Source: Gallaecimonas mangrovi | GTDB taxonomy: Bacteria > Pseudomonadota > Gammaproteobacteria > Enterobacterales > Gallaecimonadaceae | Reading direction: 5' to 3' | DNA length: 64,000 nt | NCBI RefSeq assembly: GCF_003367375.1 | Contig: NZ_CP031416.1 | Span: 1,619,501 to 1,683,500 of the forward strand | In this document: in pieces, positions 8,308-36,274 of the stretch | Position numbering within the stretch: the stretch's first letter is position 1 | Layout: each line of letters starts with the position of its first letter | The notes under the pieces: generated by a model | What the model was told of the DNA's origin: nothing | Databases searched by the model: none | Seen by the model: the letters and a program-made list of their open reading frames with translations, nothing else | Program-made: the position numbers and the translations under genes

Positions 8308-9932
8308 TACTTCACCCTCCGAGCCTTGGCAAAACTAATGGCCCCGTAGGCGCGCAGGCGCACCCCTTCAATGTTGCTGCGGGTTGCCAAAAAGCGCAGG
8401 CCATGGGCAATAGGAACAACCGGCATGGCGTCATGGAGGTATTGCTGGGCCTTAATGTAATAGGCTTTGCGTTTATCGCGGTCGGTGGTCAGCAGTGCCT
8501 TGGCCAAAATGGCGTCAAAGTCTGGGTCGCACCAGTTGGCCCTGTTGTTACCGCTGGCTAAGGCCGCGCAGGTTAAGGTTGGGCTGAAAAAGTTATCGGG
8601 GTCGGTGTTGTCGGCTGACCAGCCAATCAGCACCGAGTCATGCTCGCCACGGGCTAGGCGGCGGCGAAAGGTGTTCCAGTCATAGGTAATGATGCGCACT
8701 TTGACGTTGATCGCCGCTAAGTCCGACTGAATCAGTTCGGCCATTTTGCGGGCATTGGGATTGTAAGAGCGTGATACCGGCATCGCCCAAACATCGAGGT
8801 TAAAACCGTGCTCAAGGCCGGCGTCAGCTAATAGCTCCCGCGCCTTTTTAAGGTTTTGGGTCATTGGCGGCAGCGAGCTGTCGTAAGCCCAAGAGCTTTG
8901 TGGCAGCAACGAATTGGCTGGCGAGCCGGTGCCGTAATACACCGCCTGCATCATGGTTTTTTGGTCAATGGCCAGCGCCAAGGCATGGCGCACTTTCGGG
9001 TCGTTCAGCGGTGGGCGCTCGGTATTTAATGCCCAAAAGCCGACGTTAAGGCCGGGTTCGGACTGCAATTTAAGGTTTTTATTTTTCTTTATTTCACTGA
9101 GCTCTGAGGCCAGCGGCAGCGCCATAACATCACATTCGCCGGTTACCAATTTCGCCAGGCGCCGCGAGCTTCGCTTGGTGATATCAAAAATCAGCGGGTT
9201 AACGTCTACCGGCCCATCCCAATAATCGGGGTTGGCCTTGAAGCGAATAAAACTGTCTTTGCGGTAGCCTTCAAAGATAAAGGGACCAGTTCCCACCGGT
9301 TGGGTGTCGATGCGCTCTGGCACCCCTTGTGCCAGCAATTGGTTGGCATACTCGGCCGACAGTATTACCGCGTAGTCGGTGGCGATATTAGATAAAAATG
9401 AGGCGTCGGGGCGGTTTAGTACAAAGGTGACTTGGTAGTCGTTGTCTTTGATGATGTCATGCAGCAAAGAGCCCATGCCGATGGCATCAAAAAACGGGTA
9501 GTCGCCACCAGAGACATTATGAAAGGGGTTATTAACGTCCCACTGGCGGCGAAAGCTAAACAGCACATCGTCGGCATCGAAATCACGGCTGGGTTTGAAA
9601 TAATCGGTGGTTTGGAAATGCACGCCGCGGCGCAACACAAAGGTATAGCGCAAGCCGTCGCTGCTCATATGCCAGCTTTTAGCCAGCCGCGGGATCACAT
9701 CGCCGGTTTTCGGGTCGATATCAATCAACCGATTGTATAGCTGGTTGGCGGTTGCATCGGCGGTAGTGCCGGACGTACCGAGCTGCGGGTTAAAGGTTTC
9801 TGGGTTGCCTTCTGAGCAATACACCAGCCCCTGTTGTACCAGGCTCTTATGATTGTCGGAACACGCACAAAGCAACAAGCTCAGCATGCCCAACACCAAG
9901 ACGCGATTAGCCAGCATAACCGATGCCGTCAT
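8307..9932 (-). CDS. sapA: peptide ABC transporter substrate-binding lipoprotein SapA
   Basis: A 541-residue extracytoplasmic solute-binding protein of family 5. The N-terminus is a signal peptide ending in a lipobox (LSLLLCAC), so this form looks membrane-anchored. Family landmarks are the early VYCSEGNPETFNPQ and ATANQLYNRLI, then LAKSWHMSSDGLRYTF, and GWSADNTDPDNFFSP near the C-terminus. First gene of sapABCDF, 86 bases downstream of pspF on the same strand. Internal ATG at 9917 is an alternative start; no strong ribosome site decides. Confidence 0.9.
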   Translation of the reverse strand: MTASVMLANRVLVLGMLSLLLCACSDNHKSLVQQGLVYCSEGNPETFNPQLGTSGTTADATANQLYNRLIDIDPKTGDVIPRLAKSWHMSSDGLRYTFVLRRGVHFQTTDYFKPSRDFDADDVLFSFRRQWDVNNPFHNVSGGDYPFFDAIGMGSLLHDIIKDNDYQVTFVLNRPDASFLSNIATDYAVILSAEYANQLLAQGVPERIDTQPVGTGPFIFEGYRKDSFIRFKANPDYWDGPVDVNPLIFDITKRSSRRLAKLVTGECDVMALPLASELSEIKKNKNLKLQSEPGLNVGFWALNTERPPLNDPKVRHALALAIDQKTMMQAVYYGTGSPANSLLPQSSWAYDSSLPPMTQNLKKARELLADAGLEHGFNLDVWAMPVSRSYNPNARKMAELIQSDLAAINVKVRIITYDWNTFRRRLARGEHDSVLIGWSADNTDPDNFFSPTLTCAALASGNNRANWCDPDFDAILAKALLTTDRDKRKAYYIKAQQYLHDAMPVVPIAHGLRFLATRSNIEGVRLRAYGAISFAKARRVK

Positions 9933-19244: not shown

Positions 19245-20195
19245 ATGAAAACCGTCGCATTTTTGATTTTTTCAGATGTGATGATGCTGGATTTTTCGGG
19301 CCCTGCTGAAGTCTTTGCTGTTGCGAATCGTTATCTGCCTGAGCAAGAGCAGTACCTCATTCAAACCATTGGCGCTGAAGACGGTTTAATCACGGCATCA
19401 AACGGTGTCGCTATCCAGCCACAACTCACGCTAGCGCAAGCCCAGCATGCCTTTGATTTGTTGCTCTTTCCGGGGGGGCCAGGCGCCTACGATTTTGGTC
19501 ATCCTCAATGGGTGCCCTGGGTGAAAAGTGCTACCGCCAAGGCAGGGCAGTTTGCCTCTATTTGCACTGGCGCCTTTTTGCTGGCTGAGGCGGGGCTGCT
19601 GAAGGGGCGGCGCGTTACCACCCATTGGCGTTATTTAGAGCGCTTAGCCAAACGCTGTCCTGAAGCGCTGATAGAAAACAACCAGCTTATTGTTCAAGAC
19701 CATAAATTTCTAAGTTGTGGCGGTATTACTGCCGGCATCGATTTGGCGTTATTTATCGTTGAGCAGCATCATGGCCATGAATTGGCGCTTAAGGTGGCCA
19801 AGGTGCTGTTGGTGGTGATGAAACGGCAAGGCGGCCAGGCGCAGTTCAGCCCACTGCTGGCGGAGATAAGTAATGAAGATAATCCGATAAGCCAGGTTCA
19901 GCGCTATGTTGTTGACCATTTGCACGACGATTTTAGCGTTGAAAAAATGGCGGCGATGGCGGCAATGAGCCAGCGGCATTTTAGCCGTAATTTTCAGCGG
20001 CAAGCGGCAATGACGCCGATGGAGTTCGTACGGGCCGCGCGGGTAGATGAGGCAAGAGTTTTATTAGAAACCAGTCAGTTGCCTTTGAAAACCATTGCTT
20101 TTGAATGTGGTTTTAGTGGCCCAAGACAGCTACGGCAGCATTTTCTGGAGTGCCTGGGGATAACCCCGGCTCAATATCGCAGCCGTTTTGGCTAG
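19245..20195 (+). CDS. GlxA-type AraC family regulator (DJ-1/PfpI domain plus AraC helix-turn-helix)
   Basis: 316 residues. Residues 1-~185 are a class I glutamine-amidotransferase-like DJ-1/PfpI domain with a nucleophile-elbow Cys (ASICTGAFLLAEAGLL) and THWR. Residues ~215-316 are an AraC DNA-binding domain (FSVEKMAAMAAMSQRHFSRN, IAFECGFSGPRQLRQHF). These proteins are cytoplasmic sensors whose ligands are often unknown. AGGAGGGCAGG precedes the ATG. Single transcription unit divergent from the TetR gene. Confidence 0.9.
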   Translation: MKTVAFLIFSDVMMLDFSGPAEVFAVANRYLPEQEQYLIQTIGAEDGLITASNGVAIQPQLTLAQAQHAFDLLLFPGGPGAYDFGHPQWVPWVKSATAKAGQFASICTGAFLLAEAGLLKGRRVTTHWRYLERLAKRCPEALIENNQLIVQDHKFLSCGGITAGIDLALFIVEQHHGHELALKVAKVLLVVMKRQGGQAQFSPLLAEISNEDNPISQVQRYVVDHLHDDFSVEKMAAMAAMSQRHFSRNFQRQAAMTPMEFVRAARVDEARVLLETSQLPLKTIAFECGFSGPRQLRQHFLECLGITPAQYRSRFG

Positions 20196-20364
20196 TGATG
20201 GCCGAAATGGGAATCATTTTGGCCGGATTTGGCCTAATTGTATGACCAATTTCGGTGATAAGTGGATTAAAAAAGAGATTCGAGTCCACTAACAAGAGGA
20301 GGCACCGTGACGAGCAAGGCTTAGGTTGAGCCTCTGATGCCAAGCTCTTAGGGTGCACAACAGC

Positions 20365-21795
20365 ATGGATATACCCACCAGCCTTCCGAGCGAGGCCTTA
20401 CGTTTTGGGCCTTTTGTGCTTTATCCGCAGCAACGCCTGTTGCTGGAGAACGGCCGTCAAGTGGACCTTGGCGGTAAGGCCATGGACTTACTCTTGGTCT
20501 TTTTAGAACATCCAGGCCAAACCCTGAGTAAAACGCAATTGATGGCCAAGGTGTGGCCAACCACCATTGTTGATGAAATATCGGTGCGGGTACATATGGT
20601 TGCGCTGCGAAAAGCCTTGGGCGAGAGTCGGCGCAAAGAGCACTATATTTTAACCTTGCCGCAGCAGGGGTATCGTTTTGTTGCTGAGGTTGCATTGCTG
20701 CAACAGGCCGCTGCCGAGGAAGCCAAAACGCCGGCTAATTTACCGGCGTTACTCAATGCCACCTTGGGAAGAGAAACGGAAACCGCCGCAGCTGTTAGGT
20801 TGCTAAGTAGCAGGCGAATGCTGACCCTTATCGGCCCAGGCGGCATTGGTAAGAGCACCGTTGCGATTAGGGCCAGTGAACGTGTTAGTGACCATTTTGC
20901 CGATGGCATTCATTTTCTTGATGTATCGCAGCTGCCTGAACAAATCGATTTGGCGATGGCGCTGACCCACAGCTTAGCGCTGGATACACCGCATCAGTTG
21001 CCCCGTTTTTTTGAACCCTTACAAATGCTGCTGGTGCTCGATAACTGTGAACCACTGGTAGAGCAATGTGCCCACTTGGTGGAGCGGCTGATGCGCCTAG
21101 CGCCAAGGTTAACGGTGTTGGCGACCAGCCGGGAACCTATTCGGGCCGAAGCCGAGTCGGTGCTGCATCTTGGGCCTTTGCCTTATCCGGTTGCCTGCGA
21201 CCGACTGTCGCCTACCGAGGCAATGGACTACGCCGCTATCGCCCTTTTTGTCAGCCGCGCACAAGCAAAAATGTCGGGTTTTGAACTAACGAGCGATAAC
21301 CTTTCGCAAGTTAAAGCGATTTGCCGCCGCCTTGACGGCATCCCCCTGGCCATAGAGTTGGCGTCGGCCAATGTTGACGTGCTGGGGCTTGGCGGCTTGT
21401 GCGCGCAGCTTGACCAGGGTTTATTGCTGTTAGGCTATGGCCGGCGCAATGCCCAGCAGCGCCACCGCACCTTAGAGGCCACTCTGGATTGGAGCTATGG
21501 CCTGCTGAGCCCGCAGGAGCAGCTTTGTTTTCGGGTGTTGGCGATGTTCAGCGGTGCCTTTTCGCTGGGGCAAGCCATGGACGCCTTCCACTTTGACGAA
21601 CAAGCGCGTTGCCGGCTGCTGCAAGACATCACGCAGCTGGTCAATAAATCGTTGCTAGAGGCTGATAGCGGCGGCGAGGTCGCCAAATACCGCTACTTGG
21701 ATACCACCCGCAGCTATGCGCTGGACAAGCTTAAAGAATGCGAACAAGGCCAGATGCTGGTGGGGATGACTGAGCCACTGACGGCCCACTACTAG
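20365..21795 (+). CDS. winged-helix / NB-ARC ATPase transcriptional regulator, short form
   Basis: About 476 residues. Residues ~10-105 are an OmpR/PhoB-type winged helix (LRFGPFVLYPQQRLLLENGR, DEISVRVHMVALRKALGE, QGYRFVAEV). Residues ~125-400 are an AfsR/LuxR-like NB-ARC ATPase with Walker A IGPGGIGKST, Walker B LLVLDNCE, LATSREPIRAE and GIPLAIELAS. Relatives I know usually continue with several hundred residues of TPR-like repeats after the LDTTRSYALDKL motif; this one stops about 20 residues later, so the sensor part is missing. GTG 20353 is an alternative start. It sits directly before the isochorismatase-amidohydrolase-XapX-DoxX operon and is its likely regulator. Confidence 0.8.
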   Translation: MDIPTSLPSEALRFGPFVLYPQQRLLLENGRQVDLGGKAMDLLLVFLEHPGQTLSKTQLMAKVWPTTIVDEISVRVHMVALRKALGESRRKEHYILTLPQQGYRFVAEVALLQQAAAEEAKTPANLPALLNATLGRETETAAAVRLLSSRRMLTLIGPGGIGKSTVAIRASERVSDHFADGIHFLDVSQLPEQIDLAMALTHSLALDTPHQLPRFFEPLQMLLVLDNCEPLVEQCAHLVERLMRLAPRLTVLATSREPIRAEAESVLHLGPLPYPVACDRLSPTEAMDYAAIALFVSRAQAKMSGFELTSDNLSQVKAICRRLDGIPLAIELASANVDVLGLGGLCAQLDQGLLLLGYGRRNAQQRHRTLEATLDWSYGLLSPQEQLCFRVLAMFSGAFSLGQAMDAFHFDEQARCRLLQDITQLVNKSLLEADSGGEVAKYRYLDTTRSYALDKLKECEQGQMLVGMTEPLTAHY

Positions 21796-22198
21796 TGGGC
21801 ATGCTTAATGGGTAAGCGCCGTTAAGCACGATTTTTAACAGCGATTAACTGGGCAGTATTGGCCTGTTGTTTAACCATAAAAAGACCGGCGCGGATGAAG
21901 GCTGCCTCACTCAGCTTTTGTCGGCCGGTATCCTCCGGCCCCCAGTGGGCCCTTCCCCTAACGTGTGTTTAGCCGGCAATAGCCGGCTTTTTTTATGGTG
22001 CTAAAAAGCGGTGGTGCTGTTGGATTTTGTTGGCCCAAGGGTAACGCGAATTAACAGGCTTTAACTCGCCAGCAAGAGCCGTGCTGGCAAACATAGAAGG
22101 GCACATTGCGGTTAGCAAAGAAGGGGCCTGGTGCCATTTTCTGCGCTGGCTCGACCTTAATAAATAACGCGATTCAACAACCCAAAGAGGAATCCCCC
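21796..22198 (+). other. 400-base gene-free region holding a terminator and the operon leader
   Basis: No convincing reading frame. The first half ends in the hairpin at 21971-21994. The second half is the leader and promoter region of the isochorismatase operon; I find no clear -35/-10 pair. A GC-rich stretch around 21885-21960 could fold but matches no RNA family I recognise. Confidence 0.5.
21971..21995 (+). terminator. terminator after the NB-ARC regulator
   Basis: AGCCGGC (21971-21977), loop AATA, GCCGGCT (21982-21988), followed by a T run. Confidence 0.8.
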
Positions 22199-22852
22199 AT
22201 GGCCATCGCCAAAGCTGCTCCAGGTAAAACCCTGCTTTACCCCAATGACCACATTCTGGTGATGATTGACCACCAGTCGCAAATGGCTTTTGCCACCAAA
22301 TCCATTGATGCAGTGACCCTTCGCAACAACGCAGCCTTAGTGGCGAAAGCGGCCAAGGAGTTTGATGTTTCCACCATTTTGACCACCGTGGCCGAAAAGA
22401 GCTTTTCAGGCCCTATCTTCGAGGAGATCAGTTCGGTCTTTCCGGGCTGCTCGGTGATTGACCGCACCACCATGAACACCTGGGAAGATGAGCGTATTGC
22501 TGAGCGTGTTAACAACCTGGGTAAACCGAAAATTGTTTTGGCCGGGCTTTGGACCTCGGTGTGTATTGTTGGCCCAGCGTTATCGGCCCTAGATCAGGGT
22601 TTTGAGGTTTATTTCATTGCTGATGCTTGTGGTGATGTGTCGGTTGAAGCCCACGAAATGGCGATTCAGCGCATGCTGCAAATGGGGGCGCGTCCGATGA
22701 CGTCGCTGCAATACCTGCTGGAGCTGCAACGCGACTGGGCTCGCACTGATACCTACGACCAAACCGTGCAAACCGCCGTTGCCAACGGTGGCGCTTATGG
22801 TTTGGGGCTGATTTACGCCAAAACCATGTTTAACGCCTCTGAAGGGCACTGA
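22199..22852 (+). CDS. isochorismatase-like cysteine hydrolase (YcaC-like)
   Basis: 217 residues of the isochorismatase-like hydrolase fold. The presumed catalytic set is the Asp in ILVMIDHQ, the Lys in TTVAEKSFSGP and the Cys in TSVCIVGPALSALDQGF. It resembles YcaC, whose substrate is unknown. AAAGAGGAA precedes the ATG at 22199. First gene of an operon reaching DoxX. Confidence 0.85.
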   Translation: MAIAKAAPGKTLLYPNDHILVMIDHQSQMAFATKSIDAVTLRNNAALVAKAAKEFDVSTILTTVAEKSFSGPIFEEISSVFPGCSVIDRTTMNTWEDERIAERVNNLGKPKIVLAGLWTSVCIVGPALSALDQGFEVYFIADACGDVSVEAHEMAIQRMLQMGARPMTSLQYLLELQRDWARTDTYDQTVQTAVANGGAYGLGLIYAKTMFNASEGH

Positions 22853-22894
22853 GACAGCCGGCGCCCCGTGCTGGGGCGTCTGAAGGTGACTGTT

Positions 22895-23437
22895 ATGTCC
22901 AAGGATGCCGTTACGCTGGTTATTCGCCATCAGGTAAAAGCCGGTTACAAAGCCCTTTATGAAAACTGGCTACGTAAAGTGACCGAAATGGCCAGCCGTT
23001 ACCCCGGCCATTTGGGGGTTGATGTGATGCACGATGCTGACGATTTTATCAGCGTGCTGCGTTTTTCCAGCGCTGCAGCCCTTGAGCAGTGGCTGGAGTC
23101 GAATGCCCGCAAGCAACTGCTGGACGAAATCGGCCCCTATCTGGCGAAAGAGGAAAGCCGCGAACAACACCAGGGGCATGAATTCTGGTTTGTGCCTTCG
23201 TCAACAAAGGCGTCACCGCCGACACGGTGGAAACAGGCGCTGCTGACCTTTTGGGTGATCCTGCCGTTGACCTTGGGTTTCCCGCTGCTACTCAAACCGG
23301 TTTTTGCCCTCTCGCCCTGGTTAGGAAATTACGTTGCCCGCAGTGTCTTGGTAACGCTTTGCATCGTGCTGTCGGTGGTCTATGTGCTGATGCCACGCCT
23401 CACCAAGCTGTTAGCCCATTGGCTTAACAAGCCCTGA
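22895..23437 (+). CDS. antibiotic-biosynthesis-monooxygenase (ABM) domain protein with membrane tail
   Basis: 180 residues. Residues ~5-100 form a dimeric alpha/beta-barrel ABM domain (TLVIRHQVKAGYKALYENWL, YPGHLGVDVMHDADDFISVL). Residues ~115-170 hold two membrane helices (ALLTFWVILPLTLGFPLLL and VLVTLCIVLSVVYVL). The fusion of an ABM domain to two helices is known in bacteria but its activity is not defined. Start 22895 has AAGGTGA upstream. Second gene of the operon, 42 bases after the hydrolase. Confidence 0.8.
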   Translation: MSKDAVTLVIRHQVKAGYKALYENWLRKVTEMASRYPGHLGVDVMHDADDFISVLRFSSAAALEQWLESNARKQLLDEIGPYLAKEESREQHQGHEFWFVPSSTKASPPTRWKQALLTFWVILPLTLGFPLLLKPVFALSPWLGNYVARSVLVTLCIVLSVVYVLMPRLTKLLAHWLNKP

Positions 23438-23455
23438 GTACAAGGAGTGCTCTTC

Positions 23456-25293
23456 ATGAATGCCGATATTATTTTCAAAAATGGCCGTATCCATACCGTC
23501 GATAAAGCCAACCCCTATGTCAGCGCCGTTGCCATTAAGGATGGCCGTTTTATCGCGGTGGGGAGTGATGCCGAGGCCATGGCCTATTGCCATCAACACA
23601 CCCAGGTGGTCGACCTCAACCGGCGCACCGTTATTCCCGGGCTCAATGACTCGCACCTGCACCTTATTCGCGGTGGTCTTAATTACAACTTAGAGCTGCG
23701 CTGGGAAGGGGTACCCTCGCTGGGTGACGCCTTAGCCATGCTCAAAGCCCAGGCTGAACGCACACCACAGCCGCAATGGGTGCGGGTTGTGGGCGGCTGG
23801 AACGAGTTTCAGTTTGCAGAGCAGCGCATGCCAACCCTTGAAGAGCTTAATCGTGCGGCGCCAGATACTCCGGTGTTTGTACTGCATCTTTACGACAGAG
23901 CCATGCTCAATCGTGCTGCGCTCAAGGTGGTGGGGTATGACAAAAACACCCCCAATCCCCCTGGCGGTGAAATAGTGCGAGATGGCAACGGTAACCCCAC
24001 CGGCATGTTGATTGCCCGCCCTAACGCCATGATTCTTTACGCAACCTTGGCTAAGGGCCCGAAATTGCCGTTGGAATACCAAGTGAATTCCACCCGCCGT
24101 TTTATGCATGAGCTTAATCGGCTGGGTTTAACCAGCGCCATTGATGCCGGTGGCGGCTTTCAGAATTATCCGACGACTATGAAGTTATTCAACAGCTTGC
24201 TGATGCCAACGAACTTACGGTGCGCATTGCCTATAACCTTTTCACCCAAAAGCCCCAAGAAGAATTGGCCGATTTTCAAAACTGGAGCAAGCAAGTTAGC
24301 CCGGGGCAGGGCAGTGATTTCTTCCGCCATAACGGCGCTGGCGAAATGTTGGTGTTTTCGGCGGCAGACTTTGAAGACTTTCTTGAGCCGCGCCCGGACT
24401 TGCCACAATCGATGGAAGACGAACTGGAACCGGTGGTGCGGCATCTGGTAGCCGAGCGCTGGCCCTTTCGACTACATGCAACCTATGACGAATCCATTTC
24501 CCGAATGCTGGATGTGTTTGAGAAGGTTAACCGTGACATTCCTTTCGACGGTTTGCCTTGGTTTTTTGACCACGCTGAAACCATTAGCCCCCAGAACATT
24601 GAACGGGTAAGGGCCTTGGGGGGCGGTATTGCCATTCAAGATCGCATGGCCTTTCAGGGCGAATATTTTGTAGACCGCTACGGCCCGGAGGCCGCCAAGC
24701 AAACGCCCCCCATCAAACGCATGCTGGCAGAAGGTGTGCCAGTTGGCGCCGGAACGGATGCAACACGGGTATCCAGTTACAACCCCTGGACCTCACTTTA
24801 TTGGCTGGTCTCGGGCAAAACCGTCGGTGGCCTTTGCCTGTACCCCGAAGGGTTAGACCGTGCCGAGGCGTTGGCGCTTTTCACCCATGGCAGTGCCTGG
24901 TTTTCATCAGAGCAAGGGCAAAAAGGGCAGATAAAAGTTGGCCAGCTGGCTGATCTTGCCGCCCTTAGTAGCGACTTTTTCAAGGTGGAAGAAGAGGCCA
25001 TCAAATGGATTGAGTCGGTGCTGACCGTGGTGGGCGGCAAAGTGGTTTATGCCAGTGAGGAATTTAAAGACTTAGCGCCGCCCGAATTGCCGGTATTGCC
25101 CGACTGGTCGCCGGTAGCTTTGGTACCGGGACATTGGCGGCCTGGCAGCGACGTTAAGATGAGCGTGCATCACTGCGCAGGAGCCTGTTCTGTGCATGGT
25201 CATTGTCATGACAAGGCGCGCTTTAGCGACGTACCGGTAAGTGATTACCAGGGCTTTTGGGGCGCCTTTGGCTGTTCCTGTTTCGCGTTTTAA
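23456..25293 (+). pseudogene. YtcJ-like amidohydrolase broken by a one-base frameshift
   Basis: The 5' frame (from ATG 23456, AAGGAG upstream) encodes the N-terminal beta-sandwich and metal motif DSHLHLIRGG, and reads correctly to GGGFQNYP near 24171. The 3' frame then resumes with DDYEVIQQLADANELTVRIA and runs to 25293. Adding one base at about 24170-24172 makes one 612-residue enzyme, complete for the Amidohydro_3 family: HATYDESI, FFDHAETI and GAGTDATR carry the remaining His and Asp ligands. The C-terminus is unusually Cys/His-rich (HHCAGACSVHGHCH, then GCSCFAF). The substrate is unknown. The break is either an assembly error or a recent mutation, since the rest is intact. Confidence 0.85.
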
Positions 25294-25307
25294 TTGGGAG
25301 GTGAGTT

Positions 25308-25532
25308 ATGCGACCACTTTTAGGGTTACTGCTGGGGTTACTAATTGGTGCGGGCTGCCGTTTGCTTGGCATACCGCTACCGGCCCCACAAGCGCTGATT
25401 GGTGCGTTACTGGTATTGGCCATGACCTTGGGGTACGGCCTGGTGGGCCTGTTAAATAGCTGCCGCCCTGCCACTCAACAGAGCAACTGCGGCGGCCCCA
25501 GTGGCCGGCGTCAAACAGGAGGCATTCGATGA
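25308..25532 (+). CDS. XapX (DUF1427) small membrane protein, copy 1
   Basis: 74 residues, two hydrophobic helices joined by the family hairpin: GLLIGAGCRLLGIPLPAPQA then ALLVLAMTLGYGLVG. The tail after residue ~50 is polar with two Cys. GGAGGTGA precedes the ATG. The function of XapX proteins is unknown. It overlaps copy 2 by four bases (ATGA). Confidence 0.85.
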   Translation: MRPLLGLLLGLLIGAGCRLLGIPLPAPQALIGALLVLAMTLGYGLVGLLNSCRPATQQSNCGGPSGRRQTGGIR

Positions 25533-25717
25533 CGGCGCTAATGGGCATGGTGTTGGGGCTGCTGATAGGCGGCGGCTGTCGCTGGTTTGATATTCCGGTG
25601 CCGGCCCCGCCTAAACTGATGGGCGCCTTGTTGGTTGTGGCAATGACCCTGGGGTTTATCGCCACCGACGCCTTGTTGGCCAAACCGGCTACTACTGCCA
25701 TGGAGGCCAGTAAATGA
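25529..25717 (+). CDS. XapX (DUF1427) small membrane protein, copy 2
   Basis: 62 residues, closely similar to copy 1 in the core (GLLIGGGCRWFDIPVPAPPK, GALLVVAMTLGF) but without its polar Cys-containing tail. AGGAGG precedes the ATG. ATGA overlaps link it to copy 1 and to DoxX. The pair looks like a tandem duplication that has diverged. Confidence 0.85.
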   Translation: MTALMGMVLGLLIGGGCRWFDIPVPAPPKLMGALLVVAMTLGFIATDALLAKPATTAMEASK

Positions 25718-26121
25718 ACCTGTATTTGCTGATGGTGCGTTGCTGCCTAAGCGCGGTCTTTTTGTTTAGCGGTGTCGATAAAGTGCTGCAATGGACGCAA
25801 GCCCAGCAGGAAGTGGCGGCCTTAGGTTTACCCATGCCAAGTCTGTTGGCCCTGGCCACCATCGTTGTGCAACTGCTTGGCGGGTTGCTGGTGCTATTGG
25901 GTGTGTATCTGCGTTTAGGCTGCCTGCTATTAATGAGCTTTACGGTGCTGGCCACCTTGCTGGCGCATTGGCCGCTCGGGGCGCCAAGTCCCATCATGGC
26001 CCTGACGACCAGCTTGGAGCACGTGGCTATTCTGGGCGGCTTTGCAGCATTGATGCTGCTTGGGCCTGGAGCCTATCGGCTGCCTCAAGTGGCTAAGCCC
26101 AGGCTCCATCCGTCATCGTAG
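25714..26121 (+). CDS. DoxX family membrane protein
   Basis: 135 residues with four hydrophobic helices. The N-terminus MVRCCLSAVFLFSGVDKVLQW is the DoxX signature and GLPMPSLLALATIVVQLLGG the second helix. DoxX proteins are small inner-membrane proteins tied to redox and oxidative stress, with unclear chemistry. Last gene of the operon, followed by a terminator. Confidence 0.85.
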   Translation: MNLYLLMVRCCLSAVFLFSGVDKVLQWTQAQQEVAALGLPMPSLLALATIVVQLLGGLLVLLGVYLRLGCLLLMSFTVLATLLAHWPLGAPSPIMALTTSLEHVAILGGFAALMLLGPGAYRLPQVAKPRLHPSS

Positions 26122-26145: not shown

Positions 26146-26183
26146 GCCAGCCAGGATTTGTGTTCTTGGCTGGCTGTTGTTTT
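26146..26183 (+). terminator. terminator of the isochorismatase-DoxX operon
   Basis: GCCAGCCA (26146-26153), 13-base loop, TGGCTGGC (26167-26174), then TGTTGTTTTT. Confidence 0.7.
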
Positions 26184-35890: not shown

Positions 35891-36274
35891 TCACGAAAAA
35901 CGTTTGTTAAGGACCAAAGCGCCGCCACCCAGACCGGCCTGAACCAACAGGGCAACAATCCAAAATACCGGAAATTCCCAGCCGCCGCCTTTATTCGAAA
36001 ATACCCAACCATTGTGCATATGAACGGTTAATGCGCCGAGCAGCAGCGGAATAAAGGCCAGGGCCACCCAGCGGGTGTAGAGGCCGAATATCAGCGCCAA
36101 ACCGCCGCCCACTTCCGCCAAAATAGCGATGTAGGCGAAAAAGCCAGGAAAGCCGACCGATTCAAAGTAACCAACGGTACCAGGAATGGTGAAGACAAAA
36201 ATTTTCATTAAGCCGTGGGCAAGGGCCATTACCCCTAAGGACAGGCGTAATAAAGTGGTGGCATAAGCTTGCAT
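35891..36274 (-). CDS. DoxX family membrane protein
   Basis: 127 residues, four membrane helices, with LLRLSLGVMALAHGLMKIF and YIAILAEVGGGLALIFGLYT typical of DoxX. GGAG lies ~7 bases before the ATG. First gene of a DoxX-dioxygenase pair, downstream of a LysR gene on the same strand. Confidence 0.88.
   Translation of the reverse strand: MQAYATTLLRLSLGVMALAHGLMKIFVFTIPGTVGYFESVGFPGFFAYIAILAEVGGGLALIFGLYTRWVALAFIPLLLGALTVHMHNGWVFSNKGGGWEFPVFWIVALLVQAGLGGGALVLNKRFS

What the first reader, a model, noticed from the sequence alone, without database searches (positions are those of the whole stretch)
20353..26121. Uncharacterised enzyme-membrane operon: isochorismatase-like, ABM-membrane fusion, amidohydrolase, XapX x2, DoxX, with an NB-ARC regulator
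Six tightly spaced or overlapping genes combine two hydrolases, a possible monooxygenase-fold protein tethered to the membrane, and three small membrane proteins of unknown function. I recall similar sets near winged-helix ATPase regulators in other proteobacteria. The set reads like a stress- or toxin-detoxifying pathway acting at the membrane, with no known substrate. This is the best candidate for an undescribed system in the window.
Basis: partly seen in the sequence, partly recalled or inferred. Interest (0 to 1): 0.7.

Follow-up and report, generated by a model that had tools for sequence, protein, structure and literature searches.

The report
Conserved two-hydrolase membrane-linked operon, uncharacterised
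This stretch carries a gene set, two hydrolases plus small membrane proteins, that recurs as a travelling unit in many soil and plant bacteria and has no known job; in this particular genome its central enzyme gene is split by a one-base frame break.

Summary
Six genes (YcaC-like hydrolase, ABM domain fused to a membrane tail, amidohydrolase, XapX, XapX, DoxX) lie head to tail at 22,199-26,121. The regulator at 20,353 is a separate unit and has no NB-ARC match. The amidohydrolase is broken in this genome: a one-base length difference near 24,170 puts its motifs in two frames. Sister-species copies are whole.

The amidohydrolase occurs in 46 of 398 sampled Pseudomonadota genomes. Of 53 orthologue places, 47 have a YcaC-like gene nearby (40 close relatives, 7 divergent only), against 0 of 20 distant amidohydrolases. 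In 45 amidohydrolase genomes, 28 of 35 XapX genes lie within 5 kb of it (about 0.13 expected). Membrane partners look exchangeable: ABM-fusion or XapX, rarely both. The family has a C-terminal Cys/His tail in 52 of 53 orthologues, 0 of 20 controls. The tree conflicts with taxonomy, so it moves horizontally.

Most likely it is a stress-inducible hydrolytic detoxification (or scavenging) pathway for an amide- or acyl-containing electrophile. Substrate and role are inferred, not shown. Ten searches of an open-licence library listed no paper that I recognised as describing it.

The parts
19245..20195 (+). GlxA-type regulator gene (DJ-1/PfpI domain + AraC HTH), neighbour conserved in part of the relatives
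   Evidence: Pfam DJ-1_PfpI 83.7 bits, HTH_18; same order in sister genomes; 10 of 52 phylum loci
20353..21795 (+). winged-helix (Trans_reg_C) regulator with weak AAA-type ATPase match; probably its own transcription unit
   Evidence: similar length in sisters, 468 and 476 aa; 11 of 52 loci
21971..21996 (+). terminator-like hairpin with T run between regulator and operon
   Evidence: a pattern match, not proof; 21 sites found in 7.7 kb vs 12.1 in shuffles
22199..22852 (+). YcaC-like cysteine hydrolase, 217 aa; D24, R89, C122 conserved
   Evidence: PF00857 98.9 bits; residues invariant in 41 of 41 rows (window plus 40 close homologues); match D19/R84/C118 of solved YcaC; dN/dS 0.018 vs G003
22895..23437 (+). 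ABM domain fused to a C-terminal hydrophobic (two-helix-like) segment, 180 aa
   Evidence: PF03992 34.8 bits; 23 of 52 loci; the hydrophobic tail is read from the sequence, no membrane predictor was run
23456..24451 (+). amidohydrolase, first half (carries the HxH motif at 23654-23662); frame runs out of register near 24170
   Evidence: PF07969 positions 1-192; dN/dS 0.05
24170..24173 (+). place of the one-base length difference that breaks the amidohydrolase frame
   Evidence: alignment with sister genome G003
24220..25293 (+). amidohydrolase, second half (carries the conserved H, H, D of the presumed metal site)
   Evidence: PF07969 positions 207-472; 87-88% identical to sisters; dN/dS 0.044
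25159..25290 (+). family-specific C-terminal Cys/His tail (CxxxCxVHxHxH ... FWGxxGCxCFAF)
   Evidence: GCxC end in 52 of 52 and 80 of 80 orthologue loci, 0 of 20 distant Amidohydro_3; absent in one further orthologue, L245
25308..25532 (+). XapX small membrane protein 1
   Evidence: TIGR03510 42.1 bits, cut-off 27.8
25529..25717 (+). XapX small membrane protein 2
   Evidence: TIGR03510 54 bits
25714..26121 (+). DoxX membrane protein, 135 aa
   Evidence: PF07681 66.6 bits; 23 of 52 loci
26146..26174 (+). terminator-like hairpin after DoxX, 11 pairs
   Evidence: pattern match

Best explanation
A horizontally moving, regulator-linked two-hydrolase pathway. SHOWN: an amidohydrolase with a family-specific Cys/His tail and a YcaC-type cysteine hydrolase form the conserved core; near it come small membrane proteins that replace one another (ABM-fusion or XapX, with or without DoxX), often an alpha/beta hydrolase, and an MFS or outer-membrane channel protein. 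INFERRED: the two enzymes act one after the other on the same compound, an amide- or acyl-bearing electrophile (of plant, fungal or oxidised-quinone origin). The amidohydrolase opens the C-N or C-O bond using its metal; the Cys hydrolase removes the reactive second group. The membrane proteins hold the enzymes or hand over a membrane-soluble substrate, and the transporter removes the product. Local AraC/GlxA/LysR/winged-helix regulators switch it on by sensing the compound or the damage. In the window's strain the pathway is most likely off, because the amidohydrolase frame is broken, unless the break is an assembly error.
For: Core pair: a YcaC-profile hit within 8.5 kb in 47 of 52 orthologue loci (40 at 290 bits or more, 7 only by a divergent member at about 150 bits), none in the 53rd, vs 0 of 20 controls. 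All 19 of 398 genomes with a close YcaC relative are in the amidohydrolase list (2.2 expected, p 3e-20, genomes not independent; 14 of 14 genera; the window's own genome is one of the 19, and G321 has only a 49% amidohydrolase); 19 of 21 places are beside it, 2 on other contigs. XapX: 28 of 35 within 5 kb, 0.13 expected. ABM or XapX: 22 only ABM, 20 only XapX, 1 both, 9 neither of 52; at least 3 switches on a quick tree. Conserved catalytic residues: D/R/C in 41 of 41 YcaC-like rows, H67, H69, H341, H373, D435 in 12 of 12 amidohydrolases (that these bind metal is recalled family knowledge). YcaC's active Cys is a strong nucleophile that took up acrylamide, and the authors suggest stress response or nutrient metabolism (PMC4519933, passages). 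Stress-type neighbours: pirin 9 of 52 and 18 of 80 vs 0 of 20; katG 2 of 52 and an Azotobacter plasmid; FMN reductase next to ycaC in Priestia and next to the third XapX of the own genome. Low dN/dS on both enzymes.
Against: No expression, substrate or phenotype data. Pirin enrichment against controls is only p 0.055. The neighbour genes would also suit a nutrient pathway. In 9 of 52 loci the amidohydrolase has a Tat-like start, so there it may be outside the cytoplasm, away from the YcaC-like enzyme, which weakens 'one enzyme hands to the next'. 15 of 80 find_related loci lack a YcaC hit, and 13 of these show no other set member by tblastn. In many Pseudomonas loci the neighbour is a divergent isochorismatase-family protein (31-36% identical), perhaps with another substrate. 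No promoter-like site was found before the operon. The window copy is broken. The structure model of the amidohydrolase was too poor to use (pLDDT 42.7).
Confidence: 0.4

Rival explanations
1. Nutrient pathway: the same two hydrolases release nitrogen or carbon from a plant- or fungus-derived amide or lactam; membrane proteins and the outer-membrane channel take it up.
For: An Alginate_export-type outer-membrane channel in 12 of 52 loci, among them both sister genomes, suits uptake; on plasmids the gene is mostly in rhizobia and Pantoea (102 Rhizobium, 83 Sinorhizobium, 52 Pantoea, 18 Ensifer of 383 records); XapX (DUF1427) was listed in 2005 as a domain of plant-associated proteobacteria (PMC554113, passages); in the window genus it sits beside tyrosine degradation genes.
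Against: No further degradation enzyme recurred in the clustering of 53 loci (one search lists regulators, pirin and a few others); MFS_3 of 'transmembrane secretion effector' type in 19 of 52 suits export; the plasmid collection is biased by what was sequenced.
Confidence: 0.3
2. A sax-like isothiocyanate resistance locus: AraC regulator, metallo-beta-lactamase-fold hydrolase and isochorismatase-like protein acting on plant isothiocyanates.
For: A beta-lactamase-fold gene is nearby in 10 of 80 loci, 1 of 52, L245 and S. meliloti, with AraC regulators in several; saxB is described as uncharacterised (PMC12903958, passages); that saxB is isochorismatase-like is recalled only.
Against: The beta-lactamase-fold gene is missing from most loci and from the window set; the best family match of the two copies scanned is AidB lactonase, below cut-off; 'amidohydrolase' does not occur in the sax paper. 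I did not compare with SaxA or SaxB sequences.
Confidence: 0.1
3. Signal breakdown (quorum quenching or hormone turnover) by the amidohydrolase with the lactonase-like and alpha/beta hydrolases.
For: Beta-lactamase-fold neighbour most similar to AidB lactonases; many hydrolases together.
Against: That neighbour is rare; conservation of the core across Proteobacteria and a Priestia plasmid at 62-82% identity suggests a common compound rather than varied signals.
Confidence: 0.07
4. In this genome the operon is a decaying leftover with no function (this can hold together with any of the readings above for the relatives).
For: Frame break puts the HxH motif and the H, H, D motifs in two frames; two genes of the sister's set (alpha/beta hydrolase, outer-membrane channel) are not at the corresponding places in the window; in sister G001 YcaC-like, ABM and XapX were not found at the locus.
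Against: All other frames open and dN/dS 0.02-0.19, both amidohydrolase halves still at 0.04-0.05, so any loss is recent; an assembly error is not excluded because no reads were available.
Confidence: 0.35

Closest known systems
YcaC cysteine hydrolase (E. coli 1YAC; P. aeruginosa 4WGF/4WH0)
   Same: Sequence family over about 170 residues (E 3e-31 and 9e-28) and the D-R-C active-site residues
   Different: Well below the NCBIfam YcaC equivalog cut-off (126.8 vs 310 bits); steady neighbour of the amidohydrolase
Amidohydro_3 / YtcJ-like amidohydrolases (PF07969; PDB 3ICJ, 3IGH uncharacterised)
   Same: Family match and conserved HxH, H, H, D
   Different: C-terminal Cys/His tail absent from 20 of 20 distant members and from the 49-51% relatives in G001 and G321; no NCBIfam family over cut-off
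XapX (TIGR03510, DUF1427)
   Same: Both small proteins over cut-off
   Different: The name comes from the xanthosine region (recalled); here 28 of 35 XapX of amidohydrolase genomes lie with the amidohydrolase, and 5 of the 13 others inspected look to lie with nucleoside genes (read from N-termini)
DoxX / HvfX-type membrane proteins
   Same: PF07681 over cut-off
   Different: HvfX equivalog cut-off not reached (41.8 vs 80)
sax isothiocyanate genes of Pseudomonas
   Same: AraC regulators in part of the loci, hydrolases, plant-associated hosts
   Different: Beta-lactamase-fold gene mostly absent; amidohydrolase not named in the sax paper passages; no sequence comparison made

Membership tests
YcaC equivalog (NF041461) | score over 310 bits | tested here: not met
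   126.8 bits
YcaC-type cysteine hydrolases | D-R-C active site | tested here: met
   D24, R89, C122 in 41 of 41 rows, window included; in a wider set D24 50, R89 51, C122 51 of 51; paper residues D19, R84, C118
Amidohydro_3 (PF07969) | profile match over cut-off | tested here: met
   197 and 217 bits for the two halves; 449 bits for a whole sister copy
Amidohydro_3 (PF07969) | HxH and H, H, D motifs in one polypeptide | tested here: not met
   in the window they fall in two frames; together in 12 of 12 whole orthologues aligned
XapX (TIGR03510) | score over 27.8 bits | tested here: met
   42.1 and 54 bits
DoxX (PF07681) | score over 23.6 bits | tested here: met
   66.6 bits
ABM monooxygenase (PF03992) | domain score over 23.1 bits | tested here: met
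   34.8 bits
ABM monooxygenase (PF03992) | oxygenase activity | not testable with these tools
   needs an assay; no solved relative by sequence at E<=0.01
NB-ARC ATPase regulators | NB-ARC domain match | tested here: not met
   at E<=1e-3 only Trans_reg_C and weak AAA_16/AAA_22 under cut-off
sax isothiocyanate resistance | beta-lactamase-fold isothiocyanate hydrolase in the set | tested here: not met
   no such domain among the nine window ORFs scanned
sax isothiocyanate resistance | isothiocyanate hydrolysis | not testable with these tools
   needs an assay
Known anti-phage defence genes | PADLOC model match | tested here: not met
   0 of 7 proteins at E<=1e-3

The most novel reading that the evidence does not exclude
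A new kind of membrane-coupled hydrolase complex: the amidohydrolase's Cys/His tail is a metal- or redox-sensing plug that docks onto whichever small membrane protein the locus supplies (ABM-fusion or XapX), so activity is switched by metal, thiol oxidation or a membrane quinone. This would give XapX (DUF1427) its first function.
Probability: 0.15. Interest if true: 0.75.

Novelty: new variant of a known kind. Interest (0 to 1): 0.52.

Why it matters
The amidohydrolase is in about one in nine sampled Pseudomonadota genomes, on many plasmids of rhizobia and Pantoea and on one of Priestia, mostly at 60-82% identity. Something that conserved and that mobile should have a clear use in soil or on plants, and none was found in the papers searched. 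It also ties the unexplained XapX family, flagged in 2005 as plant-associated, to a definite enzyme pair, which makes its function testable.

Tried and rejected
Chance neighbourhood: rejected by controls. Defence system: no PADLOC match. Programmed frameshift: judged unlikely because the 53 orthologue places counted are each in one frame. Truncated regulator: rejected. Sax locus: not supported. Structure prediction of the amidohydrolase: a 22-sequence alignment gave pLDDT 42.7; not used, and no fold search was made. An ABM structure job was never accepted. PHROGs gave nothing useful beyond weak or unnamed matches for the YcaC-like protein and DoxX.

Literature: ten searches, three of which returned nothing. 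Only PMC554113, PMC12903958 and PMC4519933 were opened, as passages. The others were judged by listing alone, among them PMC5445863, which holds four of the family names, PMC4959519 (DoxX and isochorismatase once each) and PMC13268207 ('XapX' once). The library holds open-licence papers only and supplements could not be read, so 'not described' is limited to that.

Genomes of one genus are not independent. Of the 46 genomes, one is the window's own (broken) and one, G321, has only a 49% relative. The 53 orthologue places are the 52 at 62% identity or more plus G003; 52 were scanned, the 53rd (L245) later: it lacks the tail and the YcaC, ABM, XapX and DoxX hits. G321 (L246: 49% identical, YcaC adjacent, no tail) and the 51% paralogue in G001 were left out as distant. 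For G300 the XapX and DoxX lie on another contig end (L210); it is counted as lacking them. The 20 controls are 20 of the 34 distant places, nearly all from the window's order, so they are not matched by phylum. The profiles for one search were built from loci of the set itself. Pirin was counted over whole fetched stretches of unequal length, three of the nine hits being weaker (58-210 bits). The 0.13 expected assumes 4.5 Mb genomes and random placing.


Full report
WHAT IS THERE. The window lies in a single-contig genome of 4.07 Mb. On the + strand, 22,199-26,121 holds six closely packed genes: a YcaC-like isochorismatase-family hydrolase, an ABM domain with a hydrophobic C-terminal segment, an amidohydrolase, two XapX proteins and DoxX. 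Terminator-like sites lie before and after them (21,971-21,988 and 26,146-26,174); no sigma-70-like promoter was found before them (pattern matches only). The winged-helix regulator (20,353-21,795) and a GlxA-type regulator (19,245-20,195) precede them. Genes that I read, by recall of the families, as tyrosine degradation (4-hydroxyphenylpyruvate dioxygenase at about 26,390 and others) follow.

THE BROKEN GENE. The amidohydrolase is split. The first frame matches profile positions 1-192 and the second 207-472 of PF07969. Compared with sister genome G003 there is one base less near 24,170. The first frame keeps the HxH motif and the second keeps the conserved H, H, D, so neither half has the whole presumed metal site. 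Sister copies of 613 and 663 codons (the second counted from its first start codon) and the other orthologue places, 53 in all, are each in one frame. dN/dS against G003 is 0.05 and 0.044 for the halves and 0.018 for the YcaC-like gene, so any loss is recent, or it is an assembly error; without reads I cannot tell.

THE SET IN RELATIVES. G003 has GlxA, winged-helix regulator, an alpha/beta hydrolase, YcaC-like, ABM-fusion, amidohydrolase, XapX, XapX, DoxX, an Alginate_export-type channel, then the dioxygenase gene; in G001 amidohydrolase, DoxX and channel are there but no YcaC-like, ABM-fusion or XapX hit. Two other same-genus genomes (G002, G004) have only distant amidohydrolases (29 and 31% identity).

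CO-OCCURRENCE. In an even draw of 398 Pseudomonadota genomes, 46 hold the amidohydrolase at E<=1e-120 (one of them, G321, at 49% identity only). XapX is in 32; both are in 25, against 3.7 expected; by genus 22 against 4.4 expected. In 45 amidohydrolase genomes, 28 of 35 XapX lie within 5 kb of it, 0.13 expected. In 52 orthologue loci the neighbours within 8.5 kb are: YcaC-like 47 (40 close, 7 only a divergent member), ABM-fusion 23, DoxX 23, XapX 21, MFS_3 19, alpha/beta hydrolase 18, AraC 14, channel 12, winged-helix 11, GlxA 10. A 53rd, L245, has none of the first four but has beta-lactamase-fold, AraC and winged-helix genes. Around 20 distant amidohydrolases: YcaC-like 0, XapX 0, DoxX 0, ABM 1, GlxA 3. 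From the other side, close YcaC relatives (E<=1e-70) occur in 19 of 398 genomes, all in the amidohydrolase list; 19 of 21 places are beside it, the other two on other contigs. Plasmids: 383 records at E<=1e-60, 353 of them at 60-80% identity, including a Priestia plasmid with YcaC, hydrolase, ABM and amidohydrolase genes together. In the 80 find_related loci: YcaC 65, ABM 61, DoxX 35, winged-helix 33, XapX 2 over the whole stretches.

SHAPE OF THE SYSTEM. In most loci that have one, the ABM-fusion or XapX lies about 1.2 kb before the middle of the amidohydrolase, and rarely do both occur: 22 ABM only, 20 XapX only, 1 both, 9 neither of 52. On the amidohydrolase tree these two labels switch at least three times (quick tree, SH-aLRT only). 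The tree mixes families and classes. The window's second half falls in a supported group of 20 rows: 3 of its own genus and 17 of one other family, f30, which I take to be Pseudomonas because its 80-85% identity to the query equals that of the named Pseudomonas loci. This implies transfer. DoxX presence needs 14 changes, so it comes and goes. A Tat-like start is found in 9 of 52.

THE TAIL. The 52 scanned orthologues and the 80 find_related loci all end with GCxC plus an aromatic residue; HxHxH precedes it in 51 of 52 and 80 of 80, the fuller C..C.xHxHxH form in 47 of 52 and 80 of 80. None of 20 distant amidohydrolases has it. The exception is L245. The relatives at about 50% identity in G001 and G321 lack it. 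I recall no description of it; no family model or paper seen here named it.

ENZYMES. The YcaC-like protein keeps D24, R89 and C122 in 41 of 41 rows. These align with D19, R84 and C118 of YcaC, whose cysteine took up acrylamide in the crystal (PMC4519933, passages). The amidohydrolase keeps H67, H69, H341, H373 and D435 in 12 of 12. A solved 81-residue fragment, 3GGM (BT9727_2919), matches its N-terminus strongly.

FUNCTION. Hydrolases without organic cofactors, a nucleophilic-cysteine enzyme, exporter-type MFS proteins, local regulators and neighbours such as pirin (9 of 52; 18 of 80; 0 of 20), katG and an FMN reductase point to removal of a reactive acyl or amide compound. The channel protein and the plant-associated distribution point about as well to feeding on one. 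I put detoxification at 0.4 and catabolism at 0.3. Neither is shown.

NOVELTY. Each family is known; the combination was not met in the ten searches made. I call it a new variant of a known kind (hydrolytic detoxification or degradation operons), with an unexplained element, the tail, and a close link to XapX.

Noticed in passing
G000:C1:68362-68505 (locus L039, about 8345-8512): A third XapX in the own genome lies beside an NADPH-dependent FMN reductase and an AraC regulator; the FMN reductase pairing is also in G001 (L243).
   Followed up: partly
L232-L236: Five of 13 XapX genes inspected away from the amidohydrolase sit between what look like a purine nucleoside phosphorylase and a deaminase gene (read from N-termini by recall, not scanned), in line with the origin of the XapX name; the other eight have other surroundings.
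   Followed up: partly
Escherichia albertii plasmids (hits H95-H97): Partial matches to the amidohydrolase (56-79% of its length); 13 Escherichia records in all hold a match.
   Followed up: no
PDB 3GGM: A solved 81-residue 'uncharacterized protein BT9727_2919' (a Bacillus locus name, recalled) looks like an N-terminal piece of this amidohydrolase family.
   Followed up: no
window about 36020-36259, - strand (G000:C1:1655520-1655759): A second DoxX gene in the window, away from the operon.
   Followed up: no
L069, L074, L080-L082, L084, L086, L097, L103, L111, L120, L126, L128: Thirteen Pseudomonas amidohydrolase copies with the tail but with no other set member found nearby by tblastn; L084 starts with a twin-arginine-type signal. 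A stand-alone form.
   Followed up: partly
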